A model generated the notes under the pieces. The model ran no database searches. It had not been told where the DNA came from and saw nothing but the letters and a program-made list of their open reading frames with translations. Both the position numbers and the translations under genes were made by a program. 64,000 nt of DNA from Rhizobium sp. GN54 (GTDB lineage: Bacteria > Pseudomonadota > Alphaproteobacteria > Rhizobiales > Rhizobiaceae): assembly GCF_021026345.1 (NCBI RefSeq), contig NZ_JAJNCZ010000006.1:1-64000 (forward strand), in the 5' to 3' direction. Below are positions 9,542 through 31,945 of this stretch, in pieces. Each line of letters begins with the position of its first letter. Position 1 is the stretch's first letter.

Positions 9542-9558
9542 CGCCCACGGGCACAAGG

Positions 9559-12294: not shown

Positions 12295-12295
12295 C

Positions 12296-13792: not shown

Positions 13793-13795
13793 TGC

Positions 13796-15091: not shown

Positions 15092-15108
15092 TGGAGAGCA
15101 GAAACGGC

Positions 15109-16375: not shown

Positions 16376-16450
16376 TCGCGTCCACGCCGTAGATACAGCG
16401 ACCGGGGCGTCCCGTCGTCCCGGTCCAGTCCCGCAAATGGATAGAGCGCG

Positions 16451-18387: not shown

Positions 18388-18391
18388 ACCG

Positions 18392-19243
18392 ATGCGCACC
18401 CCGGCCCATCTCCTGTGGATCTACCGCGCCTATGTGCTGATCTTCTTCCTGTATCTGGTGGCGCCGCTCGTCGCCGCCGGCGCATTCGCCTTCAACGATT
18501 CGCTTTTCCCTGCCTTGCCCTGGCAGGGCTTCACGCTCGACTGGTTCTTCTCGCCGAACGAACCGAAACTCGGCCTGTTCCACGACGACAGGCTCCTGCG
18601 CGGGCTCGGCAATTCCGTCTTTATCGGCGTGATCGTCGCTGTGCTATCCGTCATCGCCGGCACCTGCAACGCGTTCCTGTTCGTGCGCAAGGACTTCCCG
18701 TTCAAGTCGGTCCTCTACATCCTGATGGTCGTGCCCCTGGTCATCCCGGGCGTCATTCTGGGCATTTCCATCCTTGTCTTCGCCTCGATGATCGCCAATT
18801 TCGCCGACCGCGAACTCGGGCTGCTCCTCACCTGGCTGAGGCCGGGTATTCCGCTCGTGCTCCTGGGGCAGTTTTCCTTCCTGACGACGATCACCTCGCT
18901 GGTGATCGCGGCGCGATTGCAGAAGTTCGACGTGTCCATCGAGGAAGCCGCCTTCAATCTCGGCGCCAGCGGCCTGCGCGTGCTGATGACGATCACGCTT
19001 CCCTTTCTGGCTCCGGCGATGTTTTCGGCCTTCGTCGTCGCCTTCCTGGTTTCCTTCGAGAACTTCAACACAACGCTGATGCTGGTCGGCTCGGACGCAC
19101 CCCTGACGGTCACCATGTACGACCGGATGGTAAAGGTCGGCTCGACACCGGTCCTCAACGCCGTGTCGGTGGTGCTGATGCTCGGTTCCGGGATTCTCGC
19201 GCTGATCAGTGTGCTAGCTCAGCGTGAGCGCACCTCGCCATAA
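18392..19243 (+). CDS. Polyamine-type ABC transporter permease (PotC family)
   Basis: Second permease (283 aa) of the importer. The EAA-like loop is IEEAAFNLGASGLRVLMTITLPFLAPA. The N-terminal helix is followed by the expected periplasmic segment (FTLDWFFSPNEPKLGLF). Last gene of the operon: a 161-base gap to the convergent LacI gene follows, in which I see no gene and no clear terminator. Confidence 0.92.
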   Translation: MRTPAHLLWIYRAYVLIFFLYLVAPLVAAGAFAFNDSLFPALPWQGFTLDWFFSPNEPKLGLFHDDRLLRGLGNSVFIGVIVAVLSVIAGTCNAFLFVRKDFPFKSVLYILMVVPLVIPGVILGISILVFASMIANFADRELGLLLTWLRPGIPLVLLGQFSFLTTITSLVIAARLQKFDVSIEEAAFNLGASGLRVLMTITLPFLAPAMFSAFVVAFLVSFENFNTTLMLVGSDAPLTVTMYDRMVKVGSTPVLNAVSVVLMLGSGILALISVLAQRERTSP

Positions 19244-19404
19244 GCGGGGAGACTGGGTGAGCGATTTCATCGATGTGGTTACCTGGTAAGGCGTCTTCCT
19301 CGACGCCTTCGCGCGCCGGATTGCAGCTGGCAGGTGAGCCGGACGGCGCATGCCGGGTTCGTCCTCGACGCCCTGGAGCAGCCCCCTCATGAGCGGCGTC
19401 CCAT

Positions 19405-20421
19405 TCATCGCGGTGCGGTTGATTCGCGGATCACCAGCGAATAGTCCACTTCATAGTGGTTCGGGACCTTGTGTCCCTCGAGACGGGCGAGGATGTATTC
19501 GCCCGCGCCCTTCCATGTGAGATCGGTCGGCACATGGAGCGTGGTCAGCGCCGGGCGCAGATGGCGGCTCCATTCGAGATCATCGAAGCCGACGACGGAC
19601 AGGTCCGAGGGCACATGAAGCCCTCTGCGCTCGGCCTCCAGCATGACGCCATAGGCAAGCACGTCGTTACCGCAGGCAATCGCCGTCGGCACATCCTCGA
19701 CGGAGAAGATCTGCCTTGCCGCCTCGCGCGCGTCGTCGAGCGTGTAGCGAACCTCGACATGCCATTGTGGCGGCAGGTCCATTCCGTTTTCCGCAAGTGC
19801 CCGACGAAAGCCGCGGAGACGCGCACTGGCGCGGTCGTTGTTGCGCTGGAGTGCGCTGACGACACCGATACGGCGATGGCCGATTTCGATGAGGTGCATC
19901 ATGGCGCGATGGGCTGCGGCCTCGTTGTCGACGCCGATGCTCGGATGCGGCTGGTTGGGATTGTAGATGCCGACATTGATGAAGGGGATGTCGCGGCTGA
20001 CCAGCAGATCGCGAAGCATCTGATGATGACAGTCGCCGCGGAGGATAAGCCCGTCGACGCCGCGGCTGATCAGGTTGCGCGCCTGTTCCAGCTCCACGTC
20101 GATGTCATAGCCGTTGGTCGACAGGATGAGCATGTACCCTTGCGAGGACAGGAAGTTCTGCAGGGAGGAAATGCCGCGCGCAAACATCGCGTTGTCGATC
20201 GTCGGAATGATCGCGCCGATCGTGCGGGTGCGGTTGCTGGAAAGGGCGCGGGCCATGCCGTGCGGCACGTAGCCCGTCTGGTCTATGATGGTCTGGATAC
20301 GGGCGCGCAACTCCTCGCTGACACTGTGCGGGTTGTTGAGCGCCCGCGAGACGGTCGCGGTTGAAACGCCGGACAGCTTGGCCACGGCCCGTATGCCGGT
20401 CTTTTCCTTGTCGTTGCCCAT
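19405..20421 (-). CDS. LacI family transcriptional regulator
   Basis: Repressor of 338 aa. The N-terminal helix-turn-helix is RAVAKLSGVSTATVSRALNNPHSVSEELR, followed by the hinge helix region (YVPHGMARALSSNRTRTIGAIIP) and a periplasmic-binding-protein-like effector domain. It is divergent from the 20631-31945 operon. Two TGTAAC-type palindromes lie in the gap, one 13 bases before its own start and one 62 bases before the operon start, so it probably represses both itself and the operon. The effector is presumably the imported sugar or an intermediate. Confidence 0.93.
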   Translation of the reverse strand: MGNDKEKTGIRAVAKLSGVSTATVSRALNNPHSVSEELRARIQTIIDQTGYVPHGMARALSSNRTRTIGAIIPTIDNAMFARGISSLQNFLSSQGYMLILSTNGYDIDVELEQARNLISRGVDGLILRGDCHHQMLRDLLVSRDIPFINVGIYNPNQPHPSIGVDNEAAAHRAMMHLIEIGHRRIGVVSALQRNNDRASARLRGFRRALAENGMDLPPQWHVEVRYTLDDAREAARQIFSVEDVPTAIACGNDVLAYGVMLEAERRGLHVPSDLSVVGFDDLEWSRHLRPALTTLHVPTDLTWKGAGEYILARLEGHKVPNHYEVDYSLVIRESTAPR

Positions 20422-20434
20422 GAGTGCGGCCCAG

Positions 20435-20452
20435 ATATGTAACGTTACATAT
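20435..20452. promoter_or_regulatory. LacI-type operator proximal to the repressor gene
   Basis: Perfect 18-base palindrome ATATGTAACGTTACATAT, 13 bases upstream of the repressor start codon on the opposite strand. TGTAAC half-sites are typical of LacI-family binding. Here the half-sites abut directly. Confidence 0.75.
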
Positions 20453-20552
20453 GTTTGCGCCGTTCATCACGCAATTGTCAAATGGAAAATCCTTGTGTTT
20501 CGGCGCGCTCTTTCTCAGTCAGGCTGGTTGACAGAGAAAAGTGCAATGGGAT

Positions 20553-20568
20553 ATGTAACCGGTTACAT
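20553..20568. promoter_or_regulatory. LacI-type operator proximal to the catabolic operon
   Basis: Perfect 16-base palindrome ATGTAACCGGTTACAT, 62 bases upstream of the binding-protein start. It matches the usual LacI-family 14-base core (TGTAACCGGTTACA) and has two more bases between the half-sites than the site at 20435-20452. Confidence 0.8.
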
Positions 20569-20630
20569 CTTGATCGCGCTCGGGAGGAGCGTTGAAGATG
20601 CCGCCGCCGGCGGCCAAAGTGGAGGAAGCC

Positions 20631-21923
20631 ATGCCGATAAGACATTCAATCCGCTCCGTTGCCGCCTCGCTGCTGTTGTGCGGCGTCGCAACCTCGGCTT
20701 TTGCATTCGATTGGAAGGCGCATGAGGGGGAGACCGTCTCGTTCCTCGCCAACAATAATCCCTGGTCGCAGGCGGTTCTATCCTACAAGGATGAATTCAC
20801 CGCGCTGACCGGCATCAAGCTCAAGGTGGACTCCTATCAGGAGCAGCAGATGCGTCAGCGTCTCGTCACCGTGCTGAATTCCGGCAGCGACGAGGTCGAC
20901 GTCTTCATGACGCTTGCCTCCCGTGAGGGGCAGCAGTTTGCCGCGTCCGGCTGGTATGCGGACCTCTCTGCCTATGCGCAGGACGCCGTGGCGCCGGAAT
21001 ACGATTTCGCGGGCATAAGCCCGGCTCTCGTCAAGGCCGCGACCTTCGACGGCAAGCTGACCAGCGTTCCGCTCAATCTCGAAGGCCCGCTGCTGTATTA
21101 CCGGACCGACATCTTCGAAGCGTGCGGGCTTGCAAAGCCGGCTTCGCTTGACGACGTGCGCGCCGCCGCCGAGAAGATCAAGGAATGCGATTCCGGCGTC
21201 ACGCCCTTCGCTTCGCGCGGCTTGAAGCCCGCGATCGCCTATACGTTCAGCAACGTGCTGCACAATATGGGCGGCACCTATATCGTGGACGGCAAGTCGG
21301 CGCTCTGCTCGCCGGCGGGTCAGAAGGCGATTTCCTACTACGGCGACCTGATGCGCGAATACGGTCCTCCGGGTGCGGCGAACTACAGCTTCTACCAGAT
21401 TTCGGCGCTCTACCGCAGCGGCCGCGCCGCCATGGCGTTCGAATCCTCCAACGAACTGCGCACCATCATGGAAGGCGGCGAACGCCTGAACGACACCGAG
21501 GTCCTGGCGCTGCCGGCCGGCGAGGCGGGAACCGTTCCGACGGCCATCGGATGGGGCCTGGCGATTTCCAGTCACAGTGCGAAGAAGGATGCGGCCTGGT
21601 ACTTCGTGCAATGGGCCTCGAGCCCTGAAATGCAGAAGCGCCTGGCGCTCCAGGGCGTTGCCTCGCCGCGCGCCTCGGTCGCCTCCAATGAGGAGTACAA
21701 GGCCTGGATCGCCGAGGCGCCGGTGCGGGGGAGTTGGCAGGCAGCGCTCGGTGTTCTTGCGTCCGACGGTTCCTCGGAGGTCGGCTACCCGATCGTAGCC
21801 AACCCGGAATCGCGCGACTATATCGGCCAGGCCGTGCAAGACGTGCTTCTCGGTCAACGGTCGGTCGAAGAGGCATGCGCCGCTGCCGACAGCGCGCTCG
21901 ACGGCCTGATCGCCCGCAAGTGA
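20631..21923 (+). CDS. CUT1-type carbohydrate ABC transporter substrate-binding protein
   Basis: Periplasmic sugar-binding protein of 430 aa (family 1 solute-binding proteins). Signal peptide about residues 1-24 (PIRHSIRSVAASLLL to SAFAFD). Typical stretches are VTVLNSGSDEVDVFMTLASREGQQFAASGWYADLS, LNLEGPLLYYRTDIFEACGL and GRAAMAFESSNELRTIM. The ATG at 20631 has GGAGGAAG upstream and yields a proper signal peptide. An ATG at 20598 with its own GGAGGA is possible but would add eleven residues ahead of the signal sequence. First gene of the LacI-controlled operon. The fold suits polyols or monosaccharides; the sequence does not reveal which. Confidence 0.9.
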   Translation: MPIRHSIRSVAASLLLCGVATSAFAFDWKAHEGETVSFLANNNPWSQAVLSYKDEFTALTGIKLKVDSYQEQQMRQRLVTVLNSGSDEVDVFMTLASREGQQFAASGWYADLSAYAQDAVAPEYDFAGISPALVKAATFDGKLTSVPLNLEGPLLYYRTDIFEACGLAKPASLDDVRAAAEKIKECDSGVTPFASRGLKPAIAYTFSNVLHNMGGTYIVDGKSALCSPAGQKAISYYGDLMREYGPPGAANYSFYQISALYRSGRAAMAFESSNELRTIMEGGERLNDTEVLALPAGEAGTVPTAIGWGLAISSHSAKKDAAWYFVQWASSPEMQKRLALQGVASPRASVASNEEYKAWIAEAPVRGSWQAALGVLASDGSSEVGYPIVANPESRDYIGQAVQDVLLGQRSVEEACAAADSALDGLIARK

Positions 21924-21991
21924 TGCATCTGCCGGGCTCTGTTCTGCAGAGCCCGGCATCCTACGAACTCGCCCACTGGAAAGACCTGATC

Positions 21992-22867
21992 ATGACACCA
22001 GGCTCGACCAATAGCCAGGGACGGCAGCTTGCTGCCTTGTCCGCACCGGCGGTCATCTTCACCGTCGCGATGATCGCCTTCCCGGTGGTCTACACGATCT
22101 GGCTCGGTTTCCATTCGTATTCGTCGACGGGCGAGGCGCGCTTTTCGGGCGTCGAGAACTATTCTGCGCTCGTCGCCGACGGCGAGTTCTGGAACGGGCT
22201 CTATGTCACCTTCGCGCTCTATTTCCTGTCCATGATCCTGCAGCTCGTTGCCGGCATCTATCTTGCCATGCTGCTGTTCCATTCCAAGCGGCTGTCGGGC
22301 TTGCTGCGCTCGCTTCTGATCTCGCCCTTCATGATGCCGCCTGTGGTCGCGGGCATGATGTGGCTCGTCATCCTCGACCCCTCGCTCGGCGCGGCGAACT
22401 ACCTTCTGGAATCCCTCGGCCTGCCGGCATCCGAGTGGCTGGCGTCCCCGACCTGGGTGATCCCGACCATCGCTTTGATCGACACGTGGCAGTGGGCGCC
22501 CTATGTCGCGCTGATCGTGCTCGGCGGCCTGCAATCCCTGCCGCCGAGCGTCTACGAGGCCGCACAGATCGACGGTGCCTCGCCGTTCCGCATCTTTCGT
22601 CGCATCACGCTGCCGCTGCTGCTGCCGACCATCGTCACCGCCGCGGTGTTGCGGAGCGTCGACCTGCTGCGCTTCTTCGACATCATCTACATCACAACCC
22701 AGGGCGGGCCGGGCAATGCCTCGAACACGCTCAATATCTATGGTTTCCGGGTCGGCTTCGAGTTCTTCAACATCGGCTATGCCAGCGCGCTCATGATCAC
22801 GCTTTCGGCCATCGTTCTAGCCGCCGTGCTCGTGCTCAATCGCCTGCGCAACGCGGTCGCCTGGTAA
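21992..22867 (+). CDS. CUT1-type sugar ABC transporter permease 1
   Basis: Inner-membrane permease of 291 aa (MalF/UgpA type) with about six helices. The EAA loop is YEAAQIDGASPFRIFRRITLPLLLPT. The start at 21992 is preferred; an in-frame ATG at 21923 overlapping the previous stop would add a non-hydrophobic 23-residue leader. It lies ten bases before the second permease. Its partners are the binding protein, second permease and the ATPase at 24714. Confidence 0.9.
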   Translation: MTPGSTNSQGRQLAALSAPAVIFTVAMIAFPVVYTIWLGFHSYSSTGEARFSGVENYSALVADGEFWNGLYVTFALYFLSMILQLVAGIYLAMLLFHSKRLSGLLRSLLISPFMMPPVVAGMMWLVILDPSLGAANYLLESLGLPASEWLASPTWVIPTIALIDTWQWAPYVALIVLGGLQSLPPSVYEAAQIDGASPFRIFRRITLPLLLPTIVTAAVLRSVDLLRFFDIIYITTQGGPGNASNTLNIYGFRVGFEFFNIGYASALMITLSAIVLAAVLVLNRLRNAVAW

Positions 22868-22877
22868 GGAGACGACG

Positions 22878-23705
22878 ATGAACGATCATTCAAGCTCAGG
22901 CCGCTGGCTGCACTGGCTGAACACGGTTCAGTTGACGATTGCCGGCATCCTCATCCTGGCGCCGACCGTCTGGATGGTGCTTTCCTCCTTCAAGCCTTCC
23001 TTCGAGGTAACGGCCTATCCGCCAACGCTGTTCTTCCAGCCGACTTTCGAAAACTACGTGACGCTCTGGGAGACGACGCCATTCCTCTCCTATGCCGTCA
23101 ACAGCTTCGTCGTGACGATCGGCTCGACACTGCTCGGCCTCGCCTTCGGCATCCCGGCAGCCTTTGCGGTCTCCTGGTCGCGGATCACCTGGCCGGCCGT
23201 TTTGACGCTTGCCGCCCGCATGGCGCCCGGAACGCTCTTCCTGCTGCCCTGGTACATCATGTTCCGCGAGGTCGGCCTGATCGGCTCGTATACGGCGCTG
23301 ATCCTCAGCCACGCGGTCATCACCATGCCGATCGTGATCTGGGTTCTGCTGCCCTTCTTCGACAACATTCCGCGCAGCGTCTTTGAGGCGGCACAGATGG
23401 ACGGTTGTTCGGTGACTCGCATTCTCTGGCGTATCGCGATGCCGCTCGTCGGCTCCGGCATCGCCGTCGCGGCGATCCTCGCCTTCGTCTTTTCGTGGAA
23501 TTTCTTCCTCTTCTCGCTGATCCTGTCGAACTCCGACACGAAGACGCTGATTGCCGCCGCCTTCAACTTCGTCGGTGAAGGCTCGACCCAATGGGGCTCG
23601 CTGATGGCGGCCGCCACACTTATCGCGCTGCCGCCGCTTGCGCTCGCGATCCTTGTCCAGCGTTGGCTCGTTGCAGGGCTGACCCTCGGCGCCGTCAAGG
23701 GATGA
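22878..23705 (+). CDS. CUT1-type sugar ABC transporter permease 2
   Basis: Second permease (275 aa, MalG/UgpE type). The EAA loop is FEAAQMDGCSVTRILWRIAMPLVGSG. N-terminal features VWMVLSSFKPSFEVTAYPP are typical of the family. The stop overlaps the alcohol dehydrogenase start by four bases (ATGA), so transport and catabolism are translationally coupled. Confidence 0.92.
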   Translation: MNDHSSSGRWLHWLNTVQLTIAGILILAPTVWMVLSSFKPSFEVTAYPPTLFFQPTFENYVTLWETTPFLSYAVNSFVVTIGSTLLGLAFGIPAAFAVSWSRITWPAVLTLAARMAPGTLFLLPWYIMFREVGLIGSYTALILSHAVITMPIVIWVLLPFFDNIPRSVFEAAQMDGCSVTRILWRIAMPLVGSGIAVAAILAFVFSWNFFLFSLILSNSDTKTLIAAAFNFVGEGSTQWGSLMAAATLIALPPLALAILVQRWLVAGLTLGAVKG

Positions 23706-24709
23706 CCAGGATGACTGACACAAGAAATGCCCGCATGCGCGCCTCCGTCTTCCACGGCGACCGCAGGATCACCATCGAAACGCAGGACCTGCCGCCCGTC
23801 GGGCAAGGCGAGGTTCTGGTTAAGGTTCTGCGCACCGCACTCTGCGGCTCTGACTTCAAGCTCTGGCACAAGGGGGCGGAGTTCACCGCCGGCCACGAGA
23901 TCTTCGGCGTCGTCGAACAGCCGGGCCATCCACGCCACGGACAGCGATGCGCGGTCTATATCCCGGTGCATTGCGGCCACTGCGACGCCTGTGCTTCGGG
24001 CGACACGCAAATGTGCCTCGAGGTGTCGAGCCTGATCGGCTGGAACCGGCCGGGGGGATATGCCGAATATGTGCCGGTTCCGGAAAACTGCCTGCTGCCC
24101 GTACCGGACGACATCGAGGACGACCTGGCGCCGCTGCTTCTCGATACGATCGGGACGTCGGCACACGCGGTCCGCTTCGCCATGCCCCTGGTTCCTCCCG
24201 AAGGGCCTGCGCCGGTTCTCGTGACCGGTGCGGGCCCGGTCGGGCTCGGCGTGGTGCTGGCGCTCTCGAGCCTCGGCTACACGGACATCCATGTCAGCGA
24301 TCCGAACGAGGAGCGCCTCGCGATTGCGGCCTCCTTCGGCGCCCGGCCGCATCCGGTCGGCGCGCGCGACAAGCGCTTCAAGCTGATCTTCGAATGCTCC
24401 GGCGCCCATGCGGCCCGCAATCTCGGCATCGAACTGGTGCTGCCGCGCGGCGCGTTGATGCTGGTCGGAGAGAACGCGGCGCCCTGGACCATCGAGGAAG
24501 GCAAGATCTTCCGTCGCAAGGACTTTTACATGATCCGCACCTTCTATTTCCCGGTCGGCGACTTCGAGCCGAACGTCGAGTTGCTGCGCGCCAACAAGGA
24601 CCGCTATCGCCGGCTCGTCGACGCCGCCTTCGGCCTCGACGAGTTGCCGGAGAATTTCGCCCGCTTCGCCGAAGGCAAGCTCATCAAGCCCGTCCTTTCG
24701 TTTGGGTGA
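23702..24709 (+). CDS. Zinc-dependent medium-chain alcohol dehydrogenase
   Basis: NAD(P)-dependent polyol or sugar-acid dehydrogenase of 335 aa. The catalytic zinc ligands appear in TALCGSDFK and TAGHEIFG. The structural zinc loop is CGHCDACASGDTQMC. The Rossmann motif is VTGAGPVGLGVVLALSSLG. The closest functional types I recognise are L-idonate 5-dehydrogenase and sorbitol dehydrogenase-like enzymes. The ATGA overlap with the permease favours the start at 23702 over the ATG at 23711. Lying between the permease and ATPase genes, it probably oxidises the imported polyol (or a sugar acid) to a ketose-type product for the kinase at 25787. Confidence 0.88.
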   Translation: MTRMTDTRNARMRASVFHGDRRITIETQDLPPVGQGEVLVKVLRTALCGSDFKLWHKGAEFTAGHEIFGVVEQPGHPRHGQRCAVYIPVHCGHCDACASGDTQMCLEVSSLIGWNRPGGYAEYVPVPENCLLPVPDDIEDDLAPLLLDTIGTSAHAVRFAMPLVPPEGPAPVLVTGAGPVGLGVVLALSSLGYTDIHVSDPNEERLAIAASFGARPHPVGARDKRFKLIFECSGAHAARNLGIELVLPRGALMLVGENAAPWTIEEGKIFRRKDFYMIRTFYFPVGDFEPNVELLRANKDRYRRLVDAAFGLDELPENFARFAEGKLIKPVLSFG

Positions 24710-24713
24710 CATC

Positions 24714-25790
24714 ATGGCCTCGATCAGCATCAGGAACATCGCCAAGAAATTCGGCGAATTCACCATCATCCCGGGTCTCGACCTGGAGGTCGCCGACGAG
24801 GAATTCGTCGTATTCGTCGGCCCGTCGGGTTGCGGCAAGTCCACGCTGTTGCGCATCATTGCCGGCCTCGAGCCGTCCACCTCGGGTGAGCTCTTCATCG
24901 GCGAGACCAGGGTCAACGACGTGCCGGCCGCAAAGCGCGACATCGCCATGGTCTTTCAGGACTACGCGCTCTATCCGCATATGACGGTCTATGACAACAT
25001 GGCTTTTGCGCTCGAACTGCGCGGAATGAGCAAGGCGGAAATCGACCAGCGCGTGCGCCGGGCAGCCGGTCTTCTGCATATCGAGCCCTATCTCGACCGC
25101 AAGCCGAAGGCGCTTTCCGGCGGCCAGCGCCAGCGTGTCGCCATGGGCCGCGCGATCGTACGCGATCCGAAGGTCTTCCTGTTCGACGAACCGCTCTCCA
25201 ACCTCGATGCAAAGCTGCGCGGCCAGGTGCGCACCGAGATCAAGGCGCTGTCGCAGGAGCTGAAGACGACCATGATCTTCGTCACCCACGACCAGGTGGA
25301 GGCGATGACCATGGCCGATCGCATCGTCGTCCTGAAGGGTGGTGAGATCCAGCAGTTCGGGCGACCGGAAGAAGTCTACGAAACACCCGCCAACCAGTTT
25401 GTCGCGGGCTTCATCGGCTCCCCGGCAATGAACTTCTTCAATATCCGCCGAGCGGGCGAAAGCTTCGTCTTCGAAGGCGCTCCGGATCTTGCCGCCCCGG
25501 TGCCGGAGGCGCTGAAGGCCGCACTCGGCGCGAGGACGGAGGCGGTACTCGGCATCAGGCCGGAACATCTCGTTCCCGTCGATGGCGGCACCGGCGTGCT
25601 GCCCGTCACGATCGATCTGGTCGAGCCGCTCGGCTCTGACACGTTGACTCATTTCGATCTCGCAGGCGTGCGCACAGTGGCCCGCGTCAATCCGGAACTC
25701 CGGCCGAAGGCCGGTGACAGGCTGACGCTCGCGGCGCAAGCCGGCAAGGCGCATGTCTTCGACCGCGCGGATGGAAAGGCCATCCGATGA
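24714..25790 (+). CDS. CUT1-type sugar ABC transporter ATP-binding protein (UgpC/MalK family)
   Basis: ATPase of 358 aa. Walker A GPSGCGKST, signature LSGGQRQRVAMGRAIVRDP, Walker B VFLFDEPLSNLDAKLR, H-loop FVTHDQVEAMTMADR, then a C-terminal TOBE/OB regulatory domain (about residues 235-350). It energises the sugar importer. The ATG at 24714 is preferred to the TTG at 24702, which would lie inside the previous gene. The stop overlaps the kinase start by four bases. Confidence 0.93.
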   Translation: MASISIRNIAKKFGEFTIIPGLDLEVADEEFVVFVGPSGCGKSTLLRIIAGLEPSTSGELFIGETRVNDVPAAKRDIAMVFQDYALYPHMTVYDNMAFALELRGMSKAEIDQRVRRAAGLLHIEPYLDRKPKALSGGQRQRVAMGRAIVRDPKVFLFDEPLSNLDAKLRGQVRTEIKALSQELKTTMIFVTHDQVEAMTMADRIVVLKGGEIQQFGRPEEVYETPANQFVAGFIGSPAMNFFNIRRAGESFVFEGAPDLAAPVPEALKAALGARTEAVLGIRPEHLVPVDGGTGVLPVTIDLVEPLGSDTLTHFDLAGVRTVARVNPELRPKAGDRLTLAAQAGKAHVFDRADGKAIR

Positions 25791-26698
25791 TCCGCCCGGC
25801 AAGCATCCCCGAGGGAACTTCGCCTTCGGTCATCTGCCTCGGGCTCTCCGCGCTCGATCGCATCTGGCGGGTGGAGACGCCGTTCTCCGGAGGCAGCGAG
25901 AAGATCCGCGCGCACGAGCATCTGACGGAACCGGGCGGCATGGCGGCGAATGCCGCGGTGGCGGTCGCAAGGCTCGGCGGCACGGCAGCCTTCTGGGGTC
26001 GGGCAGGGGATGACGAGGCCGGCCGCATCATGGCCGACGATTTTGCCGCCGAGGGTGTGGATACAAGCCAGTTCCGCCGCTTCGAGGGCGGGGCATCCTC
26101 CGTCTCCGGGATTATCGTCGACGCCAGCGGCGAGCGGCAGATCGTCAATTTCCGCGGCCGCTATCCGGCCGATCCCGCCTGGTTGCCGCTCGGCGATCTT
26201 GCGGCCGACTGCGTGCTGGCCGACCCGCGCTGGCCGGAAGGCGCCGAGGCACTCTTCATCGAAGCACGTCGGCGCGGCATACCGACTGTTCTCGACGGCG
26301 ACGTTGCCGAGCGCGCTGTCTTCGAGCGCCTGCTTCCGCTGACTGACCACGCCATCTTCTCCGAACCAGGATTGCATGGCTTTGCGGGCAAGGATGTCGA
26401 GGCGGCGCTGGTACGCGTGGCGGATTTCGGTTGCCGGATGGTCGCAGTCACCCGCGGCAGCGACGGGGTCGTTTGGCAGGACGCCTCCGGCAGGCACGAC
26501 ATGCCGGCGCCATCGGTCCGCGCCGTCGATACCACAGCCGCCGGCGATGTGTTCCACGGTGCCTACGCCTTCGCGATCGGCGCCAGGCTCGGCATTGCCG
26601 ACGCGCTCGGCTTCGCCAGTTCCGTTGCCGCTCTCAAATGCACACGCCCGGGTGGCCGCGCTGCGATCCCCACCCTCGATGAATTGAAGTCAGCCTGA
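25787..26698 (+). CDS. PfkB family sugar kinase resembling sulfofructose kinase YihV
   Basis: Ribokinase-fold kinase of 303 aa. The N-terminal GGMAANAAVAVARLGG and the C-terminal DTTAAGDVFHGA, with catalytic D254, define PfkB. Several stretches match what I recall of E. coli YihV: LADPRWPEGA (R148), TVLDGDV, DHAIFSEPGL, and the end FASSVAALKCTRPGGRAAIP, which is almost identical. N121 (IVNFRG) and R148 align with positions thought to contact the sulfonate in YihV. This suggests phosphorylation of sulfofructose or a similar ketose at C1. No sulfoquinovosidase or YihS isomerase gene is present in the window. Start overlaps the ATPase stop; the aldolase follows after 13 bases. Confidence 0.88.
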   Translation: MIRPASIPEGTSPSVICLGLSALDRIWRVETPFSGGSEKIRAHEHLTEPGGMAANAAVAVARLGGTAAFWGRAGDDEAGRIMADDFAAEGVDTSQFRRFEGGASSVSGIIVDASGERQIVNFRGRYPADPAWLPLGDLAADCVLADPRWPEGAEALFIEARRRGIPTVLDGDVAERAVFERLLPLTDHAIFSEPGLHGFAGKDVEAALVRVADFGCRMVAVTRGSDGVVWQDASGRHDMPAPSVRAVDTTAAGDVFHGAYAFAIGARLGIADALGFASSVAALKCTRPGGRAAIPTLDELKSA

Positions 26699-26711
26699 AA
26701 GGAAACTCTGA

Positions 26712-27758
26712 ATGCTCTCCCTTGGTAAAACCCGCGGTCTCGCCCGTCTCGCCAACAAGAACGGCCACTTCTGCATGGTGGCGCTCGACCAGCGCCCGCC
26801 ACTCTTCGAAGCGCTTGCCGCCGCACGCGGCATCGACAAGTCGCAAGTCCCCTTTGCCGACATGATCACGGCAAAGCGCCTTCTCGTCGAGAACCTCGCT
26901 CCCCATTGCAGCTCGATGCTCTTCGACCCGAACTACGCCATTCCCGCAGCCATCGACGTGCTGCCGCCGGAATGCGGGTTGATCGTGACGCTTGAGGACC
27001 ATCGCACGGAAGAGACCGAGGGCGGCCGCAAGTCCAAGGTCATCGCCGACTGGAGCGTCGAGAAGATCCGCCGTCTCGGCGGCGATGCGGTGAAGGTGCT
27101 CGCGTGGTACCGTCCCGACGCATCGGCCGACGTCCTCGAACATCAGAAGGAGTTCGTGCGCAAGATTGGCGAGGATTGCCGTCGCCACGACATTGCCTAC
27201 GTGCTCGAACTGCTCGTCTTCCCCTTCCTCGGCACGGCCGGGCATACGGCGGACTATGTCGAATCCCCGACGAAACTGCCGGAACTCGTCATCGAGAGCG
27301 TGCGCGAATTCGCAAAGCCGGAATATGGCGTCGATCTCCTGAAACTCGAAAGCCCGCTGGCTGCAAACAGCCTGCCGGTGCGTGACGGCAGTGAAGCCGC
27401 CCTCGCGGCCCAGCGGGAATTCGATGCAATCGGCAAGATCTGCGCCGACGCGGGCATTCCGTGGGTGCTGCTTTCGGGCGGCGCGGCAACGGAGAAATTC
27501 GAGCGGGTGCTCGACTATGCCTATGCCGCTGGCGCTGGCGGCTTTCTGGCCGGCCGCACCATCTGGCTCAATGCGATCCGCTCGCATTTCCCGGATACCG
27601 CAGGCGTGTCCAAGGCGTTGAAGGACGAAGGCGTGGCCGTGGTAGAGCGCTTGAGCGCACTCACCTCCGCCAAGGCGCAGCGCTGGACGCCGCTTGCTCC
27701 GGCTTTCCAGGAAATCCGGAACGAAGGCGATTTCGCGACGAGCTACGCCGCGGCCTGA
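26712..27758 (+). CDS. LacD/YihT-family class I aldolase
   Basis: Aldolase of 348 aa related to tagatose-1,6-bisphosphate aldolase (LacD) and sulfofructose-1-phosphate aldolase (YihT). Visible motifs: MVALDQR near the N-terminus, DWSVEKIRRLGGDAVKVLAWYRPD, the Schiff-base lysine at about K211 (DLLKLESPL), WVLLSGG and AGGFLAGRTIW. It is somewhat longer than both reference enzymes, with an extra 40-residue tail. It would cleave the kinase product into dihydroxyacetone phosphate and an aldehyde. If the substrate is sulfonated, the aldehyde is sulfolactaldehyde; if not, a plain three-carbon aldehyde or its phosphate. AAAGGAAA precedes the start. Confidence 0.85.
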   Translation: MLSLGKTRGLARLANKNGHFCMVALDQRPPLFEALAAARGIDKSQVPFADMITAKRLLVENLAPHCSSMLFDPNYAIPAAIDVLPPECGLIVTLEDHRTEETEGGRKSKVIADWSVEKIRRLGGDAVKVLAWYRPDASADVLEHQKEFVRKIGEDCRRHDIAYVLELLVFPFLGTAGHTADYVESPTKLPELVIESVREFAKPEYGVDLLKLESPLAANSLPVRDGSEAALAAQREFDAIGKICADAGIPWVLLSGGAATEKFERVLDYAYAAGAGGFLAGRTIWLNAIRSHFPDTAGVSKALKDEGVAVVERLSALTSAKAQRWTPLAPAFQEIRNEGDFATSYAAA

Positions 27759-27787
27759 GGCACGCATAATACAGAAGGAAAGAGATC

Positions 27788-29266
27788 ATGGACGATCGAT
27801 CGACACGGCCGGTTCCGGCACTGAAGGACAGGTCCCTCCTGACCGACAAGGCATTCGTGGCCGGACGGTGGATCACGGCGGGGGACGGCAAGACCATCAC
27901 GGTCACCGATCCGTTCGACGGTGCGGTCATCGCCCATGTTCCCGATCTCGGCCTGGATGTCGTGCGGCAGGCAATCGATGCTGCCGCACTGGCCCAGGTC
28001 GAATGGGCGACGCGGTCCGCCAAGGAGCGGGCCGCCGTGCTCAAGCGCTGGTATGAACTGATCGTGGAGAACGCCGACGACCTCGCGCAGATCCTGACTG
28101 CCGAGCAGGGAAAACCGCTCGGCGAAGCCAGGGGCGAAATCATCTCCAATGCGGCCTATCTCGAATGGTTCGCCGAGGAGGGCAAGCGCCTCGACGGCGA
28201 CATCATCCCGGGTCCCGGCCGCAATCAGCGCATCATGGTGCTGAAGCAGCCCATCGGCGTCTGCGGGGCCATTACGCCCTGGAATTTTCCGAACGGGATG
28301 ATCACCCGCAAGGCGGGCCCGGCACTCGCGGCCGGCTGCACCCTGATCCTCAAGCCCGCCGCCCAGACGCCGCTTTCGGCCCTGGCGCTCGCCGTGCTGG
28401 CGGAACGTGCCGGCGTGCCGGCCGGCGTCTTCTCGGTCATTACCGGCGAGGCGCGAATGATCGGACACGAATTCTGCCACAACCCCAAAGTGGCCAAGAT
28501 CACCTTCACCGGCTCGACGGCTGTCGGGCGCTGGCTGATGAAGGAAGCGGCAGACGGCATCAAGCGCCTGTCGCTGGAACTTGGCGGCAACGCCCCGTTC
28601 ATCGTCTTCGACGACGCCGACATCGATGCTGCGGTCGAGGGCGCCATGATCTCGAAGTTCCGCAACGCCGGACAGACCTGCGTTTGCGCCAACCGCATCT
28701 ATGTTCAGGAACCGGTGGCGGAAGCATTCACCACCCGGCTTCTGGCGAAGGTCGCGGAACTGAAGCTCGGTCGCGGCACGGAAGCAGGTATCAGCCAAGG
28801 GCCGCTGATCGATGAGCGGGCCGTCGCCAAGATGGAAGAGCATGTCGCCGACGCCCTGTCCAAGGGGGGCAAGGTCCTGACCGGCGGCAAGCGCAGTGCA
28901 CTTGGCGCCACCTTCTACGAGCCGACGGTGATGAGCGGCATCACGCAGGAGATGAAGGTCGCCAGGGAGGAGACTTTTGCACCGCTCGCCCCGATCATCA
29001 CCTTCCGCGACGAGGCGGAAGTCATCGCCATGGCAAACGACAGTGAATTCGGCCTTGCTTCCTATTTCTACTCTCGCGATCTCGGCCGCGTCTGGCGGGT
29101 GGCCGAGGCGCTGGAGGCAGGCATGGTCGGTGTCAACACGGGCATGCTCGCCAACGAGATGGCGCCCTTCGGCGGCGTCAAGCAGTCCGGCATGGGCCGC
29201 GAGGGTTCGTCCTACGGCATCGAAGGCTTCGTCGAGCTGAAATATGTGGCCGTGGCCGGTATCTGA
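27788..29266 (+). CDS. NAD(P)-dependent aldehyde dehydrogenase (GabD / sulfolactaldehyde dehydrogenase type)
   Basis: Enzyme of 492 aa in the succinate-semialdehyde dehydrogenase subgroup. PWNFPNGMITRKAGPALAAG binds the cofactor, LELGGNAPFIVFDDADID holds the general base and RNAGQTCVCANRIYV the catalytic cysteine (about C298, with a second cysteine at 300 as in GabD). Sulfolactaldehyde dehydrogenase SlaB belongs to this subgroup. Coming directly after the aldolase, it most likely oxidises the aldehyde that the aldolase releases. A conventional succinate-semialdehyde role is harder to reconcile with this operon. AAGGAAAGAG precedes the start. Confidence 0.9.
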   Translation: MDDRSTRPVPALKDRSLLTDKAFVAGRWITAGDGKTITVTDPFDGAVIAHVPDLGLDVVRQAIDAAALAQVEWATRSAKERAAVLKRWYELIVENADDLAQILTAEQGKPLGEARGEIISNAAYLEWFAEEGKRLDGDIIPGPGRNQRIMVLKQPIGVCGAITPWNFPNGMITRKAGPALAAGCTLILKPAAQTPLSALALAVLAERAGVPAGVFSVITGEARMIGHEFCHNPKVAKITFTGSTAVGRWLMKEAADGIKRLSLELGGNAPFIVFDDADIDAAVEGAMISKFRNAGQTCVCANRIYVQEPVAEAFTTRLLAKVAELKLGRGTEAGISQGPLIDERAVAKMEEHVADALSKGGKVLTGGKRSALGATFYEPTVMSGITQEMKVAREETFAPLAPIITFRDEAEVIAMANDSEFGLASYFYSRDLGRVWRVAEALEAGMVGVNTGMLANEMAPFGGVKQSGMGREGSSYGIEGFVELKYVAVAGI

Positions 29267-29275
29267 GGGGCTGAA

Positions 29276-30010
29276 ATGCACGATCCCTTTTCCTTTCCGC
29301 CCGGCTTCCACGCGGTCGTCATCGGCGGGGTAGGCGGCATCGGGTCCGCGATCGCTACGCTCTTCCATTTGCGCGGCGTGAAGGTGACGGCGACGGGGCA
29401 CGATCAGGCAGCGCTCGACCGTTCGTCGCTCGCCGCCTACCCGGAAATCGCGCTCGAGATCCTGGATGTGACCTCGGACGAGGCGGTCGGCGCATTCGCC
29501 GGCCGTTTCGACCGGGTCGACACCCTCGTCAATTGCGCTGGCATTCTGGCGCGGGACGAGGAATTCAAGATCGAAACCTTCCAGCGTGTCCTCGACGTCA
29601 ACCTGACGGGCACGTTCCGCACTGCCATGGCGTTCCGTCCGCTTCTGGCGGCAAGCGGAGGCTCGATTGTCAACATCGCCTCGATGAACGCCTATTCCGC
29701 GCTGCCGCGTATCCCCGCCTATTGCGCCAGCAAGGGCGGGGTCGTCATGCTGACCAAAGCGCTGGCGATCGCCTGGGCGGAGGACGGTATCCGCGTCAAC
29801 GCGGTGGCGCCGGGCTTCATCGAGACCGCGATCAATGCCGAGGGGCGCAAGGACACCGCGCATCGTGACCGTATCGCCGCACGCACGGCACTGAAGCGCT
29901 GGGGGACGCCCGACGAGGTGGCCGGATCGGTCGTGTTCCTGGCGATGCCGGCGTCGCGCTATGCCACCGGCACGGTCTATGCCGTCGACGGCGGCTTCCT
30001 CGCGGGCTGA
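29276..30010 (+). CDS. SDR family oxidoreductase
   Basis: Short-chain dehydrogenase of 244 aa. The cofactor motif is VIGGVGGIGSAIATLF, preceded by an unusual Val instead of Thr in the usual TGxxxGIG. Catalytic residues are in NIASMNAYSALPRIPAYCASKGG (Ser, Tyr, Lys). The C-terminus AMPASRYATGTVYAVDGGFLAG is typical. It could oxidise a sugar, polyol or sugar acid ahead of the kinase/aldolase steps. The start follows the aldehyde dehydrogenase stop by nine bases. Confidence 0.9.
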   Translation: MHDPFSFPPGFHAVVIGGVGGIGSAIATLFHLRGVKVTATGHDQAALDRSSLAAYPEIALEILDVTSDEAVGAFAGRFDRVDTLVNCAGILARDEEFKIETFQRVLDVNLTGTFRTAMAFRPLLAASGGSIVNIASMNAYSALPRIPAYCASKGGVVMLTKALAIAWAEDGIRVNAVAPGFIETAINAEGRKDTAHRDRIAARTALKRWGTPDEVAGSVVFLAMPASRYATGTVYAVDGGFLAG

Positions 30011-30014
30011 TGAG

Positions 30015-31187
30015 ATGAACACCATGGAGCATCTTTCCTTGCCGGTTGCGCTCAAAAGTGTGGAAGCTCATGTCTTTCGCGTGCCGCTCGCAAAGCCCGT
30101 CTCCACATCCTTCGGGACGATGCGCGACCGACCGGCCGTGCTCGTCAGGCTCGAGGATACGGACGGTCATGTCGGTTGGGGCGAGATCTGGTGCAACTGG
30201 CCGGCCTGCGGCGCGGAACATCGGGCAAGGTTGCTCGTCTCTGACATCGCGCCGCGCGTGCTGGCCAAGCCGCTCCCGGCGCCTGCCGACCTTTGGGCAG
30301 AGCTGTCGGCCGCAACGGAGATCCTTGCCCTGCAGACGGGCGAGACCGGCCCCTATGCACAGGTCATCGCCGGCTTCGACATGGCCTATTGGGATCTGAC
30401 GGCCCGCCGCTTGGGCGTGCCGCTCGCCGAGGCGCTCTCTCCCGGCGCAGACCGTGGCGTCCGAGCCTATGCCAGCGGCATCCATATCCTCGACGCCGAG
30501 GCGGTCATCGCGCAATCGCGCTCGGTCGGATACCGGGACTTCAAGGTGAAGGTCGGCTTTGACTTCGACCGCGATCTCGCCCTCATCCGCAACCTCTCAG
30601 AAAACCTCCGCATCGGCGAGATGCTCCATGCCGACGCCAACCAGGGCTTTACGCCGCAGGAGGCGGGTGCGTTCCTGCTGGCTGTGGCAGATCTCGGTCT
30701 CGGCTGGATGGAGGAACCGGTTCGCGTGGACGCGGGGCCGACCGTCTGGGCAGAACTTGCGCGGCTGACGGCGATCCCGCTTGCCGGTGGCGAGAACCTG
30801 ATCGGGCTTGCCGCCTTCGACGCCGCGATCGCTGCGGGACATCTCTCGGTCATCCAGCCGGACGCCGCGAAATGGGGTGGGCCGAGCGGTTGTCTCGCCG
30901 TTGCCAGGGCGGCGCTGCGCGCGGGACGGCGCTATTGCCCGCATTTCCTCGGCGCAGGCATTGGCCTCGTCGCGTCCGCCCATATCCTCGCGGCGGCGGG
31001 CGGTGACGGCCTGCTGGAAATCGACGTCAACCCCAACCCTTTGCGGGACGCCATCACGCCTGCCTGGCCAGACTTGGCAGAAGGCCGGGTCGCCTTGCCG
31101 GATGCGCCAGGCATCGGGGTCGAGCCGGATCTCGGCCGGCTGGAGCCGTTTAGAACGGCGCTGCTGCGGGCCGGCGACGCAACATGA
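30015..31187 (+). CDS. Enolase-superfamily enzyme (mandelate racemase family), second copy
   Basis: Enzyme of 390 aa with K177-x-K179 (FKVKVGF), metal ligands D207 (ADANQGF), E233-E234 (MEEPVR) and E260 (GGENL), and H310 (CPHFLGAGIG). The Lys-x-Lys plus His arrangement is that of the mandelate racemase subgroup, which includes acid-sugar dehydratases and D-tartrate or galactarate enzymes. It shares little sequence with the copy at 11191. As part of the LacI operon it probably acts on a sugar acid, giving either a branch for aldonates or a dehydration step parallel to the kinase route. The ATG at 30015 follows the SDR stop by four bases; an ATG at 30024 is also possible. Confidence 0.87.
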   Translation: MNTMEHLSLPVALKSVEAHVFRVPLAKPVSTSFGTMRDRPAVLVRLEDTDGHVGWGEIWCNWPACGAEHRARLLVSDIAPRVLAKPLPAPADLWAELSAATEILALQTGETGPYAQVIAGFDMAYWDLTARRLGVPLAEALSPGADRGVRAYASGIHILDAEAVIAQSRSVGYRDFKVKVGFDFDRDLALIRNLSENLRIGEMLHADANQGFTPQEAGAFLLAVADLGLGWMEEPVRVDAGPTVWAELARLTAIPLAGGENLIGLAAFDAAIAAGHLSVIQPDAAKWGGPSGCLAVARAALRAGRRYCPHFLGAGIGLVASAHILAAAGGDGLLEIDVNPNPLRDAITPAWPDLAEGRVALPDAPGIGVEPDLGRLEPFRTALLRAGDAT

Positions 31188-31945
31188 TCACGGGTGCAGG
31201 CCTTTTCGCCTTCGTCGTCCTGTCCTTCGTAGCTGCGTATGTGCAGACGCTCACCGGTTTCGCCTTCGGGCTGCTATTGATGGGAGCGGTGGCGCTGACG
31301 GGACTGATCCCGTTCCTCGATGCCGCGATCGTCACCAGCCTGCTGACGCTGGTGAATGCCATGGTGGTGCTCGCGCGTGGCTGGCGCGACATTGCCGCAA
31401 GGCCCTTCCTGATGTCGCTTTCCAGCGCCCTGCCGATGATCGTGGCCGGCTACGCGCTGCTGGAGTTGCTCGCCTCGACCTCGCTATCGGTGCTTCGCCT
31501 GACGTTGGGCGCCGTCATCATCGTGTCCAGCCTGCAACTCATACAGCGCCCCGCACCACTCGCCCGACCATCCCGGGGAGCAAGCTTCGCCTTCTTCGGC
31601 GCGCTGGCCGGCCTGATGGGTGGGCTCTTCTCGACGGCTGGCCCCCCGCTTGTCTTCCAGTTCTACCGGCAGCCTCTTTCGCATGTCGTCATTCGCGAGA
31701 CGCTCGTCGCGATCTTTGCCGTCAACTCGCTGTTCCGTCTCGGTCTCGTCGCTGCCAGTGGCGACTGGCAGCATGATGCCCTGATCTGGACGCTTGCGGG
31801 CGTGCCCAGCGTGGTTGTCGCTTCCTATCTCGCGCGGCGTTGGCCGCCGCCGCTGGCTCAGAAGACATTGCGCAGGTTGGCATTCGTCCTGCTGCTCCTC
31901 TCCGGTCTTTCGCTGATGGCGCCCGCGCTGAATTTTGGCGCGTGA
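31184..31945 (+). CDS. TauE/SafE family anion exporter
   Basis: Inner-membrane protein of 253 aa with about eight hydrophobic helices. The start AGLFAFVVLSFVAAYVQTLTGFAFGLLLMG and the middle GALAGLMGGLFSTAGPPLVFQFYRQP are the two family repeats. TauE/SafE proteins export sulfite, sulfoacetate, sulfolactate or related organosulfonates. The start overlaps the previous stop by four bases, tying it to the operon. Export of a sulfonated end product would suit a sulfosugar pathway, although some family members carry other anions. Confidence 0.87.
   Translation: MITGAGLFAFVVLSFVAAYVQTLTGFAFGLLLMGAVALTGLIPFLDAAIVTSLLTLVNAMVVLARGWRDIAARPFLMSLSSALPMIVAGYALLELLASTSLSVLRLTLGAVIIVSSLQLIQRPAPLARPSRGASFAFFGALAGLMGGLFSTAGPPLVFQFYRQPLSHVVIRETLVAIFAVNSLFRLGLVAASGDWQHDALIWTLAGVPSVVVASYLARRWPPPLAQKTLRRLAFVLLLLSGLSLMAPALNFGA

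What the first reader, a model, noticed from the sequence alone, without database searches (positions are those of the whole stretch)
20421..31945. LacI-controlled sugar locus with a YihV-like kinase, LacD/YihT-type aldolase, GabD-type dehydrogenase and TauE/SafE exporter: possible new sulfosugar or ketose pathway
The kinase at 25787 carries LADPRWPEGA, TVLDGDV, DHAIFSEPGL and AALKCTRPGGRAAIP, which agree closely with E. coli sulfofructose kinase YihV as I recall it. It is followed by a LacD/YihT-family aldolase, then an aldehyde dehydrogenase of the subgroup containing sulfolactaldehyde dehydrogenase, and finally a TauE/SafE exporter. This order resembles sulfo-EMP variants that end in sulfolactate. 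However, the operon has no YihS isomerase and no sulfoquinovosidase. It has a zinc dehydrogenase, an SDR and an enolase-superfamily enzyme instead. A substrate entering as a polyol or acid (for example a sulfonated alditol or aldonate) would explain the dehydrogenases. Galactitol/tagatose-type catabolism is the main alternative.
Basis: partly seen in the sequence, partly recalled or inferred. Interest (0 to 1): 0.8.

Follow-up and report, generated by a model that had tools for sequence, protein, structure and literature searches.

The report
Unassigned bacterial sulfosugar-breakdown operon
A Shinella-like bacterium carries a shared set of genes that most likely imports an unidentified sulfonated sugar, cuts it in two and exports one half as sulfolactate; relatives of these genes have appeared in print but their substrate is not known.

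Summary
The operon is real: a LacI regulator (19405-20421, minus) faces eleven plus-strand genes (20631-31945). The kinase's nearest solved relative is sulfofructose kinase YihV. The aldehyde dehydrogenase is 82% identical to 8c54, which I take to be RlGabD, a tested sulfolactaldehyde dehydrogenase. The aldolase is LacD-class but shares one arginine with YihT. Zinc dehydrogenase and aldolase accompany the kinase in 46 of 87 loci; no YihS isomerase or YihQ sulfoquinovosidase was detected in 47 loci. SuyB, a sulfolactate lyase part, is in 13 of 16 other operon genomes searched outside Bradyrhizobiaceae, but in 0 of 22 Bradyrhizobiaceae.

A Paracoccus copy lies beside the published sulfofucose pathway (PMC12421959), where kinase and aldolase were not induced on sulfofucose and the strain did not grow on sulfoquinovose. 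PDB 8TNF is 99% identical to that Paracoccus aldolase.

Best reading: an isomerase-free sulfo-EMP-type pathway. A sulfonated sugar, perhaps a sugar alcohol, is oxidised to a ketose, phosphorylated, and cleaved to DHAP and sulfolactaldehyde, which becomes exported sulfolactate. Substrate and the roles of SDR and enolase are unresolved.

The parts
19405..20421 (-). LacI-family repressor, presumed regulator
   Evidence: PF00356/PF13377; a LacI match in 45 of 47 operon loci
20436..20451 (.). second palindrome TATGTAACGTTACATA, candidate operator
   Evidence: perfect inverted repeat; its core GTAACGTTAC recurs in 4 of 12 other gaps compared
20553..20568 (.). palindrome ATGTAACCGGTTACAT, candidate LacI operator
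   Evidence: perfect inverted repeat, core in 12 of 13 gaps compared; the only TGTAACCGGTTACA site in this genome at up to 1 mismatch
20631..21923 (+). ABC solute-binding protein (SBP_bac_1)
   Evidence: PF01547; nearest solved 5iai and 4rya (named sorbitol), then a trehalose/maltose protein, then SmoF
21992..22867 (+). ABC permease A
   Evidence: match in 45 of 47 loci
22878..23705 (+). ABC permease B
   Evidence: match in 45 of 47 loci
23702..24709 (+). zinc-dependent MDR dehydrogenase; proposed sulfo-polyol/ketose oxidoreductase
   Evidence: PF08240/PF00107; C48, H65, E66, C91, C94, C97, C105 kept in at least 97% of 47 copies; nearest solved Thr-DH 92.8 bits and S-DHPS dehydrogenase HpsP 8wwd 89.4 bits
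24714..25790 (+). ABC ATPase (UgpC type)
   Evidence: NF008653 486.7 bits over a 432 cut-off
25787..26698 (+). PfkB kinase, proposed sulfo-ketose 1-kinase
   Evidence: 7ag6 YihV 220 bits; superclade with YihV 100/99; K39/N121/R148 align with YihV K27/N109/R138
26712..27758 (+). class I LacD-type aldolase, proposed sulfo-ketose-1-phosphate aldolase
   Evidence: NF009498 364 bits over a 184 cut-off; K211 aligns with YihT K193, R134 shared with YihT and not LacD; 8tnf 491.6 bits
27788..29266 (+). sulfolactaldehyde dehydrogenase (GabD/SlaB type)
   Evidence: 82% identity to 8c54 (taken as RlGabD), clade support 1.000, genome paralogues 64% and 57%
29276..30010 (+). SDR dehydrogenase, role unresolved
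   Evidence: PF13561; match in 44 of 47 loci
30015..31187 (+). enolase-superfamily enzyme of mandelate-racemase type, role unresolved
   Evidence: PF13378/PF02746; K176, K178, D206, E232, E259, D282, H309 (numbered from codon 30018) each kept in 29-31 of 31 copies; match in 29 of 47 loci
31184..31945 (+). TauE/SafE-family exporter, proposed sulfolactate export
   Evidence: PF01925 65.3 bits; match in 8 of 47 loci

Best explanation
The operon encodes a sulfo-EMP-type pathway that does without an aldose-ketose isomerase. A small sulfonated sugar (my first guess is a sulfonated sugar alcohol) enters through the ABC transporter. The zinc dehydrogenase, with or without the SDR, turns it into a 6-sulfo-ketose. 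The YihV-type kinase phosphorylates C1. The LacD-class aldolase splits the product into DHAP and sulfolactaldehyde. The RlGabD-type dehydrogenase oxidises sulfolactaldehyde to sulfolactate, which leaves through the TauE-type exporter; relatives that carry SuyAB degrade it further. The LacI protein represses the operon through the ATGTAACCGGTTACAT palindrome. No step is shown by experiment here. Well supported by sequence: the dehydrogenase's substrate class and the link to sulfolactate. Inferred: kinase and aldolase acting on a sulfo-ketose, export, repression. Conjecture: the polyol nature of the substrate and the roles of SDR and enolase.
For: ALDH is 82% identical to 8c54; all 13 in-operon ALDHs with 66% or more identity to it group with it and with 8c54, support 1.000, apart from the genome's two GabD-like paralogues. 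The PDB listing calls 8c54 a succinate semialdehyde dehydrogenase; that it is RlGabD is recalled, and the eight residues checked from the paper's numbering fall on the right letters. RlGabD oxidises sulfolactaldehyde (PMC10599462, abstract start and passages). Kinase nearest to YihV, superclade 100/99; the three YihV contacts recalled from memory are in 47 of 47 operon kinases. Aldolase keeps the YihT K193, R253 and R130 equivalents; R130's position is Arg in 4 of 4 YihT and 47 of 47 operon aldolases, Asp in both LacD chains. ALDH, SuyB, SlcC, ComC or HpsN-like genes are in 16 of 25 loci outside Bradyrhizobiaceae. SuyB in 13 of 38 other operon genomes against 27 of 289 in a class sample. A Cereibacter plasmid operon joins permeases of the same family (57-59%) to a YihT (43%), a YihV-like kinase (48%), a GabD-like ALDH (55%) and a zinc ADH, no isomerase annotated in the stretch read. 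No YihS or YihQ detected in 47 loci.
Against: All 22 Bradyrhizobiaceae loci lack an RlGabD-type ALDH, TauE and SuyB near the operon, and their genomes lack SuyB; 21 of the 22 have a GabD-like protein elsewhere, at 55-61%. L030 has kinase, aldolase and enolase without zinc dehydrogenase, SDR or transporter. Kinases of the same superclade occur alone, without sulfo genes, and share K27 (39 of 40) and R138 (38 of 40); the operon kinase of L071 falls outside the operon clade. The proposed sulfonate arginines of RlGabD are also in E. coli GabD. The YihV contacts are from memory; no paper was found to check them. The SBP margin is small: 134 and 113 bits for 5iai and 4rya, 105 for a trehalose/maltose protein, 90 for SmoF, and fold scores do not separate them. 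The zinc dehydrogenase that I equate with MDP0926266 rose on sulfofucose while kinase and aldolase did not (PMC12421959). No sulfonated alditol is known to me as a natural nutrient.
Confidence: 0.65

Rival explanations
1. Polyol-pathway style isomerisation of an ordinary sulfo-aldose: the SDR reduces imported sulfoquinovose, sulfofucose or another sulfo-aldose to its alditol and the zinc enzyme re-oxidises it at C2, replacing YihS.
For: Both dehydrogenases are near-constant (ZnDH in 46, SDR in 44 of 47 loci) while no isomerase was detected.
Against: Strain Merri, whose gene numbers fit the operon of P. onubensis, did not grow on sulfoquinovose, and used SfcH/D/F/E for sulfofucose (PMC12421959).
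Confidence: 0.15
2. Sulfoquinovose degradation by sulfo-EMP with an isomerase encoded elsewhere in the genome.
For: One YihS homologue (36% over residues 2-400) lies on the same contig, about 205 kb away; kinase and ALDH fit.
Against: Its best named model is D-mannose isomerase, 374 bits, under the 600 cut-off; the operon palindrome was found nowhere else in the genome; no GH31 match; strain Merri did not grow on sulfoquinovose (PMC12421959).
Confidence: 0.1
3. Catabolism of a plain polyol or ketose (galactitol, tagatose and the like) with a LacD aldolase; the ALDH oxidises glyceraldehyde.
For: Aldolase model is tagatose 1,6-diphosphate aldolase; SBP nearest to 5iai and a sorbitol protein; 22 Bradyrhizobiaceae copies have no sulfonate gene near.
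Against: ALDH belongs to the 8c54/RlGabD clade; SuyB, SlcC, ComC or HpsN-like genes lie near copies in five loci (L027, L031, L041, L049, L071); kinase falls outside the RbsK and KdgK groups.
Confidence: 0.1

Closest known systems
Sulfo-EMP pathway of Arthrobacter spp. (PMC8873060, one of four parts read)
   Same: YihV-type kinase, class I aldolase, GabD-type sulfolactaldehyde dehydrogenase, ABC import, TauE permease in AK04, sulfolactate as end product
   Different: No YihS detected; aldolase is LacD-class and not YihT; extra zinc dehydrogenase, SDR and enolase
Unassigned kinase/aldolase group in cluster 2 of Paracoccus wurundjeri strain Merri (PMC12421959)
   Same: By gene order in P. onubensis (L049) probably the same operon: SuyB, SlcC, ComC, LacI, SBP, SDR, two permeases, ZnDH, ATPase, kinase, LacD fit MDP0926258-269 in number and order; the Merri sequences themselves were not compared
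   Different: The window copy carries an in-operon sulfolactaldehyde dehydrogenase and TauE; its genome has no SuyB match above 32%; the authors left the substrate open
Sulfofucolytic ED pathway SfcH/SfcD/SfcF/SfcE (PMC12421959)
   Same: An SDR and an enolase-superfamily enzyme beside an ABC transporter
   Different: Window SDR and enolase match the other SDR and enolase of L049 (66% and 54%), not the pair I label SfcH and SfcF by order; no match to the SfcE-like protein in the window
Cereibacter sphaeroides plasmid operon (L133)
   Same: Same permease family, YihV-like kinase, GabD-like ALDH, a zinc ADH, no isomerase annotated in the stretch read
   Different: YihT-type aldolase, distant zinc ADH (26%), tartrate-dehydrogenase-type gene
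PDB 8TNF, 'DUF2090 domain-containing protein'
   Same: 66% identical to the window aldolase and 99.1% to the L049 aldolase
   Different: No paper on it was found; the tool does not show its organism

Membership tests
Sulfo-EMP (E. coli/Arthrobacter type) | SQ-sulfofructose isomerase YihS in the cluster | tested here: not met
   0 of 47 operon loci, none in the window; one distant homologue about 205 kb away
Sulfo-EMP (E. coli/Arthrobacter type) | sulfofructose kinase YihV | tested here: inconclusive
   Same superclade 100/99; inside it the nearest group is solitary kinases (87/84) and not YihV, whose own place is weak (82/71)
Sulfo-EMP (E. coli/Arthrobacter type) | class I SFP aldolase YihT | tested here: not met
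   LacD-class: PRK12858 364 bits; YihT about 69 bits in the PDB search
Sulfo-EMP (E. coli/Arthrobacter type) | SLA reductase or dehydrogenase | tested here: met
   82% to 8c54, taken as RlGabD, clade 1.000
Sulfo-EMP (E. coli/Arthrobacter type) | growth on sulfoquinovose | not testable with these tools
   Strain Merri, with a probable copy, did not grow on it (PMC12421959)
Sulfofucolytic ED (Sfc) | SfcH, SfcF, SfcE orthologues | tested here: not met
   Using the L049 proteins that I label by order: SfcF and SfcE have no match in the operon, SfcH 43% over 115 aa only
Sulfo-ED | PF00920 sulfogluconate dehydratase and KDSG aldolase in the cluster | tested here: not met
   Neither among the Pfam hits of the ten operon proteins scanned
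Tagatose/galactitol catabolism (LacC-LacD) | LacD-family aldolase | tested here: met
   NF009498 364 bits, cut-off 184; but lacD equivalog TIGR01232 126.8 under 432
Tagatose/galactitol catabolism (LacC-LacD) | tagatose-type kinase | tested here: not met
   tagatose kinase NF049991 57.7 bits under 420; YihV superclade; no tagatose kinase was in the tree
GabD/SlaB sulfolactaldehyde dehydrogenase | proposed sulfonate arginines R171/R289 and Cys295/Glu261 | tested here: met
   All present, but also in E. coli GabD, so not diagnostic

The most novel reading that the evidence does not exclude
The operon is a dedicated pathway for a sulfonated sugar alcohol: a polyol-type transporter and polyol-type dehydrogenases feed a sulfo-ketose kinase and a LacD-class sulfo-ketose-1-phosphate aldolase. 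This would be a substrate class not known to me as a nutrient, used by members of the Hyphomicrobiales, Rhodobacterales and Burkholderiales.
Probability: 0.35. Interest if true: 0.8.

Novelty: new variant of a known kind. Interest (0 to 1): 0.6.

Why it matters
The sulfosugar routes described in the papers I saw start from sulfoquinovose or sulfofucose. Here is a recurrent operon that probably ends at sulfolactaldehyde but lacks the entry enzymes of the three routes I checked (sulfo-EMP, sulfo-ED, sulfofucolytic ED), so it may point to a further sulfosugar in nature. It also offers a home for two loose ends: the uninduced kinase and aldolase of strain Merri with its SLA-inactive 'threonine dehydrogenase', and the structure 8TNF. 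Its LacI regulator, single genomic operator and binding protein make the substrate findable by direct binding tests.

Tried and rejected
Rejected: sulfofucose ED by SfcH/F (window SDR and enolase are orthologous to the other pair of L049). Rejected as proof: YihV likeness and the K27/R138 contacts (shared by solitary kinases); the ALDH arginines (shared with E. coli GabD). Considered: enolase as a sulfolactate racemase, since it keeps the KxK and Asp-His residues (the motif's meaning is recalled); set aside because this genome shows no SuyB to need R-sulfolactate. Considered: sulfate-ester substrate, since sulfatase genes lie beside the operon in 4 of 47 loci; set aside because 43 show none. 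Led nowhere: Rfam (0 hits), tRNA (0), paper searches for 8TNF and for sulfonated alditols, print source for the YihV contacts. A search for further operator sites that could reveal a distant isomerase found only the operon's own site in this genome.

Dropped or partial rows: the kinase tree used 84 of 105 kinases; 15 Bradyrhizobium rows and 6 solitary rows were left out, and the tree program warned of long branches, YihV and 2rbc among the long rows. Of 15 other PfkB matches in this genome I used 11; 4 partial ones were left out. The ALDH tree also held a 55% gene from L006 and a partial one from L038, both outside the clade. Operator comparison used the window and 12 of 47 loci. The operator genome search covered 24 of 39 genomes: 15 had a match, 14 of them exact, 9 none; its reversed-pattern control gave 0-2 sites per genome, so single-mismatch sites carry no weight. 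L031 could not be searched. The SuyB base-rate sample is not matched for genome size, the operon genomes were chosen by kinase likeness, and I counted genera from record titles, with unnamed taxa as one genus each. Several loci are cut by contig ends, so absences may be overstated.
Full report
What is there. The window holds a LacI gene on the minus strand and, facing it, eleven plus-strand genes with small gaps or overlaps: binding protein, two permeases, zinc dehydrogenase, ATPase, PfkB kinase, LacD-class aldolase, aldehyde dehydrogenase, SDR, enolase-superfamily enzyme and a TauE-family exporter. The window has no tRNA or Rfam hits. The genome is 5.57 Mb in 28 contigs and the window is the start of contig 25, 322 kb long. 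The closest plasmid relatives of the kinase are in Shinella (83-84% identity), and the best-scoring matches to window 1-20000 are also Shinella plasmids, so the host is probably a member of the Rhizobiaceae near Shinella; I did not establish the genus.

Kinase. The best solved match is sulfofructose kinase YihV, 220 bits, ahead of 2rbc (174.6) and ribokinases near 99. In a tree of 84 of 105 kinases, window and operon kinases share a superclade with YihV and 2rbc (100/99), apart from RbsK, KdgK, FruK, PsuK and 11 other PfkB proteins of this genome. Inside it 32 operon rows plus L026, a contig that ends after the kinase, form one clade (99/96); the Burkholderiales copy L071 lies outside. At modest support (87/84) their sister is a set of solitary kinases, mostly betaproteobacterial, rather than YihV. 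Such solitary kinases had no sulfo genes near them in the loci I read. Of three YihV sulfonate contacts that I recall from memory and could not check in print, K27 and R138 are in 47 of 47 operon kinases but also in 39 and 38 of 40 solitary ones, whereas N109 is in 47 of 47 against 9 of 40; none is in the 11 other PfkB proteins of this genome. So the kinase is YihV-like, and this alone does not prove a sulfosugar.

Aldolase. The protein passes the PRK12858 tagatose 1,6-diphosphate aldolase model (364 bits over 184) and fails the lacD equivalog (126.8 under 432). Solved LacD proteins score up to 129 bits and YihT about 69. K211 aligns with YihT K193. One position separates the groups: R134 is Arg in 47 of 47 operon aldolases and 4 of 4 YihT, and Asp in both LacD chains compared. 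PDB 8tnf, named only 'DUF2090 domain-containing protein', is 66% identical to the window protein and 99.1% to the aldolase of Paracoccus onubensis L049, so a structure of this operon's aldolase exists; a search for its code found no paper on it.

Aldehyde dehydrogenase. It is 82% identical to 8c54. The PDB listing calls that entry a succinate semialdehyde dehydrogenase; I recall it as RlGabD, and the eight residues I checked from the RlGabD paper's numbering fall on the right letters in it. RlGabD oxidises sulfolactaldehyde in Rhizobium leguminosarum (PMC10599462; listing with abstract start, and passages). Thirteen in-operon dehydrogenases (67-72% to 8c54 in nine of them, 82-83% in the four from Shinella and Sinorhizobium) group with it at support 1.000, while two GabD-like proteins elsewhere in this genome, 64% and 57% identical to the window enzyme, lie outside. 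The proposed sulfonate arginines are not diagnostic, since E. coli GabD has them too.

Conservation and company. Of 87 loci examined (80 best kinase loci from genome contigs, 7 from plasmids), 46 hold both the zinc dehydrogenase and the LacD aldolase with the kinase. With L030 added, 47 loci give: LacI 45, SBP 44, permeases 45 each, ATPase 45, ZnDH 46, SDR 44, enolase 29, RlGabD-type ALDH 13, TauE 8, TctA 4, SuyB 3 (plus a piece in L049 cut by the locus end), SlcC 3, ComC 3, HpsN-like 2, sulfatase 4, YihS 0, YihQ 0; the one YihT match, in L071, is its LacD aldolase. Outside Bradyrhizobiaceae, 16 of 25 loci carry ALDH, SuyB, SlcC, ComC or HpsN-like genes nearby; inside, 0 of 22. In Sagittula L041 a small ORF of SuyA look precedes SuyB, followed by SlcC- and ComC-like genes; these names rest on family and order. 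SuyB at 67% or more is in 13 of 38 operon genomes other than the window's; all 13 are among the 16 outside Bradyrhizobiaceae, and none of the 22 Bradyrhizobiaceae has it. A class sample gave 27 of 289. Counted by genus, 10 of 14 against 21 of 218, with the caveats in the field on rejected ideas. The window genome itself has only a 32% match to SuyB, so sulfolactate would be exported, as proposed for TauE in Arthrobacter AK04 (PMC8873060, part 2 of 4 read).

The Paracoccus link. In L049 the order SuyB, SlcC, ComC, LacI, SBP, SDR, two permeases, ZnDH, ATPase, kinase, LacD, enolase, a GntR-like gene, a second binding protein and permeases, SDR, ATPase, enolase, aldolase fits the numbering MDP0926258-278 of cluster 2 in P. 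wurundjeri strain Merri, where 275, 277 and 278 are SfcH, SfcF and SfcE (PMC12421959; outline with abstract, three of nine parts, the first part of the discussion, and passages read). That fit is my inference; I did not have the Merri sequences. The authors report that kinase MDP0926268 and aldolase MDP0926269 were not significantly raised on sulfofucose, that MDP0926266 (the zinc dehydrogenase, by my mapping) was raised but did not oxidise sulfolactaldehyde, and that the strain did not grow on sulfoquinovose. They suggested sulfotagatose as a possible substrate. The operon's own substrate therefore seems to be neither sulfoquinovose nor, by need, sulfofucose.

Entry steps. The zinc dehydrogenase keeps its zinc-ligand residues (ligand roles recalled) and its nearest solved relatives are threonine dehydrogenase and HpsP, the S-DHPS dehydrogenase. 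By profile the binding protein ranks 5iai and the sorbitol protein 4rya first (134 and 113 bits), then a trehalose/maltose protein (105) and the sulfoquinovosyl protein SmoF (90); a predicted model (mean pLDDT 75) ranks 4rya and 5iai first too, but fold scores hardly separate them from SmoF. A Cereibacter plasmid operon with permeases of the same family pairs a YihT (43%) and a YihV-like kinase (48%) with a GabD-like enzyme and a different zinc ADH, with no isomerase annotated in the stretch read. Two sets thus have a zinc dehydrogenase and no isomerase, which is why I favour a polyol or other reduced sulfosugar. Against it, no sulfonated alditol is known to me in nature, and the one term search for it found no paper.

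Regulation and spread. The palindrome ATGTAACCGGTTACAT at 20553-20568 has its core in 12 of 13 regulator gaps compared and is the only site in this genome at up to one mismatch, so no distant isomerase appears to share the regulator. Of 24 genomes searched, 14 have an exact site; six Bradyrhizobium genomes and three others have none. The operon aldolase is patchy: 3 of 60 relatives besides the own genome, none of six congeners, and only the own genome among 289 of the class.

Verdict. The sulfosugar reading is well supported by the dehydrogenase and by the sulfolactate genes of many relatives, with the Bradyrhizobiaceae as the main exception; the substrate is open. I rate it a new variant of sulfoglycolysis rather than a new kind of system, already glimpsed but not explained in the papers I found.

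Noticed in passing
L133 (Cereibacter sphaeroides plasmid d), 1-8888: Operon with YihT (43%), YihV-like kinase (48%), GabD-like ALDH (55%), zinc ADH and a tartrate-dehydrogenase-type gene, no isomerase annotated: a probable second isomerase-free sulfosugar set.
   Followed up: partly
L033, L036, L038, L040, L042, L053, L061, L064: Solitary YihV-superclade kinases in Noviherbaspirillum, Roseomonas and others, without sulfo genes nearby in the loci read; function unknown.
   Followed up: partly
L006, L029, L086, L087: Sulfatase genes, and in L086/L087 a sulfatase-modifying factor and a sulfonate ABC transporter, beside the operon.
   Followed up: no
L045, L046 (Paracoccus MAGs): These copies keep an in-operon sulfolactaldehyde dehydrogenase that P. 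onubensis L049 lacks, which may bear on the missing SLA oxidation step reported for strain Merri (PMC12421959).
   Followed up: no
L071: Burkholderiales copy with the zinc dehydrogenase, kinase and LacD next to an HpsN-like gene, an SDR and a second zinc dehydrogenase, and SuyB upstream; no match to the ABC set.
   Followed up: no
window 11206-13774: A second enolase-superfamily gene and an aldehyde dehydrogenase upstream, followed by another ABC transporter.
   Followed up: no
window 32101-34908: MASE1-PAS-HisKA sensor histidine kinase just downstream of the operon.
   Followed up: no
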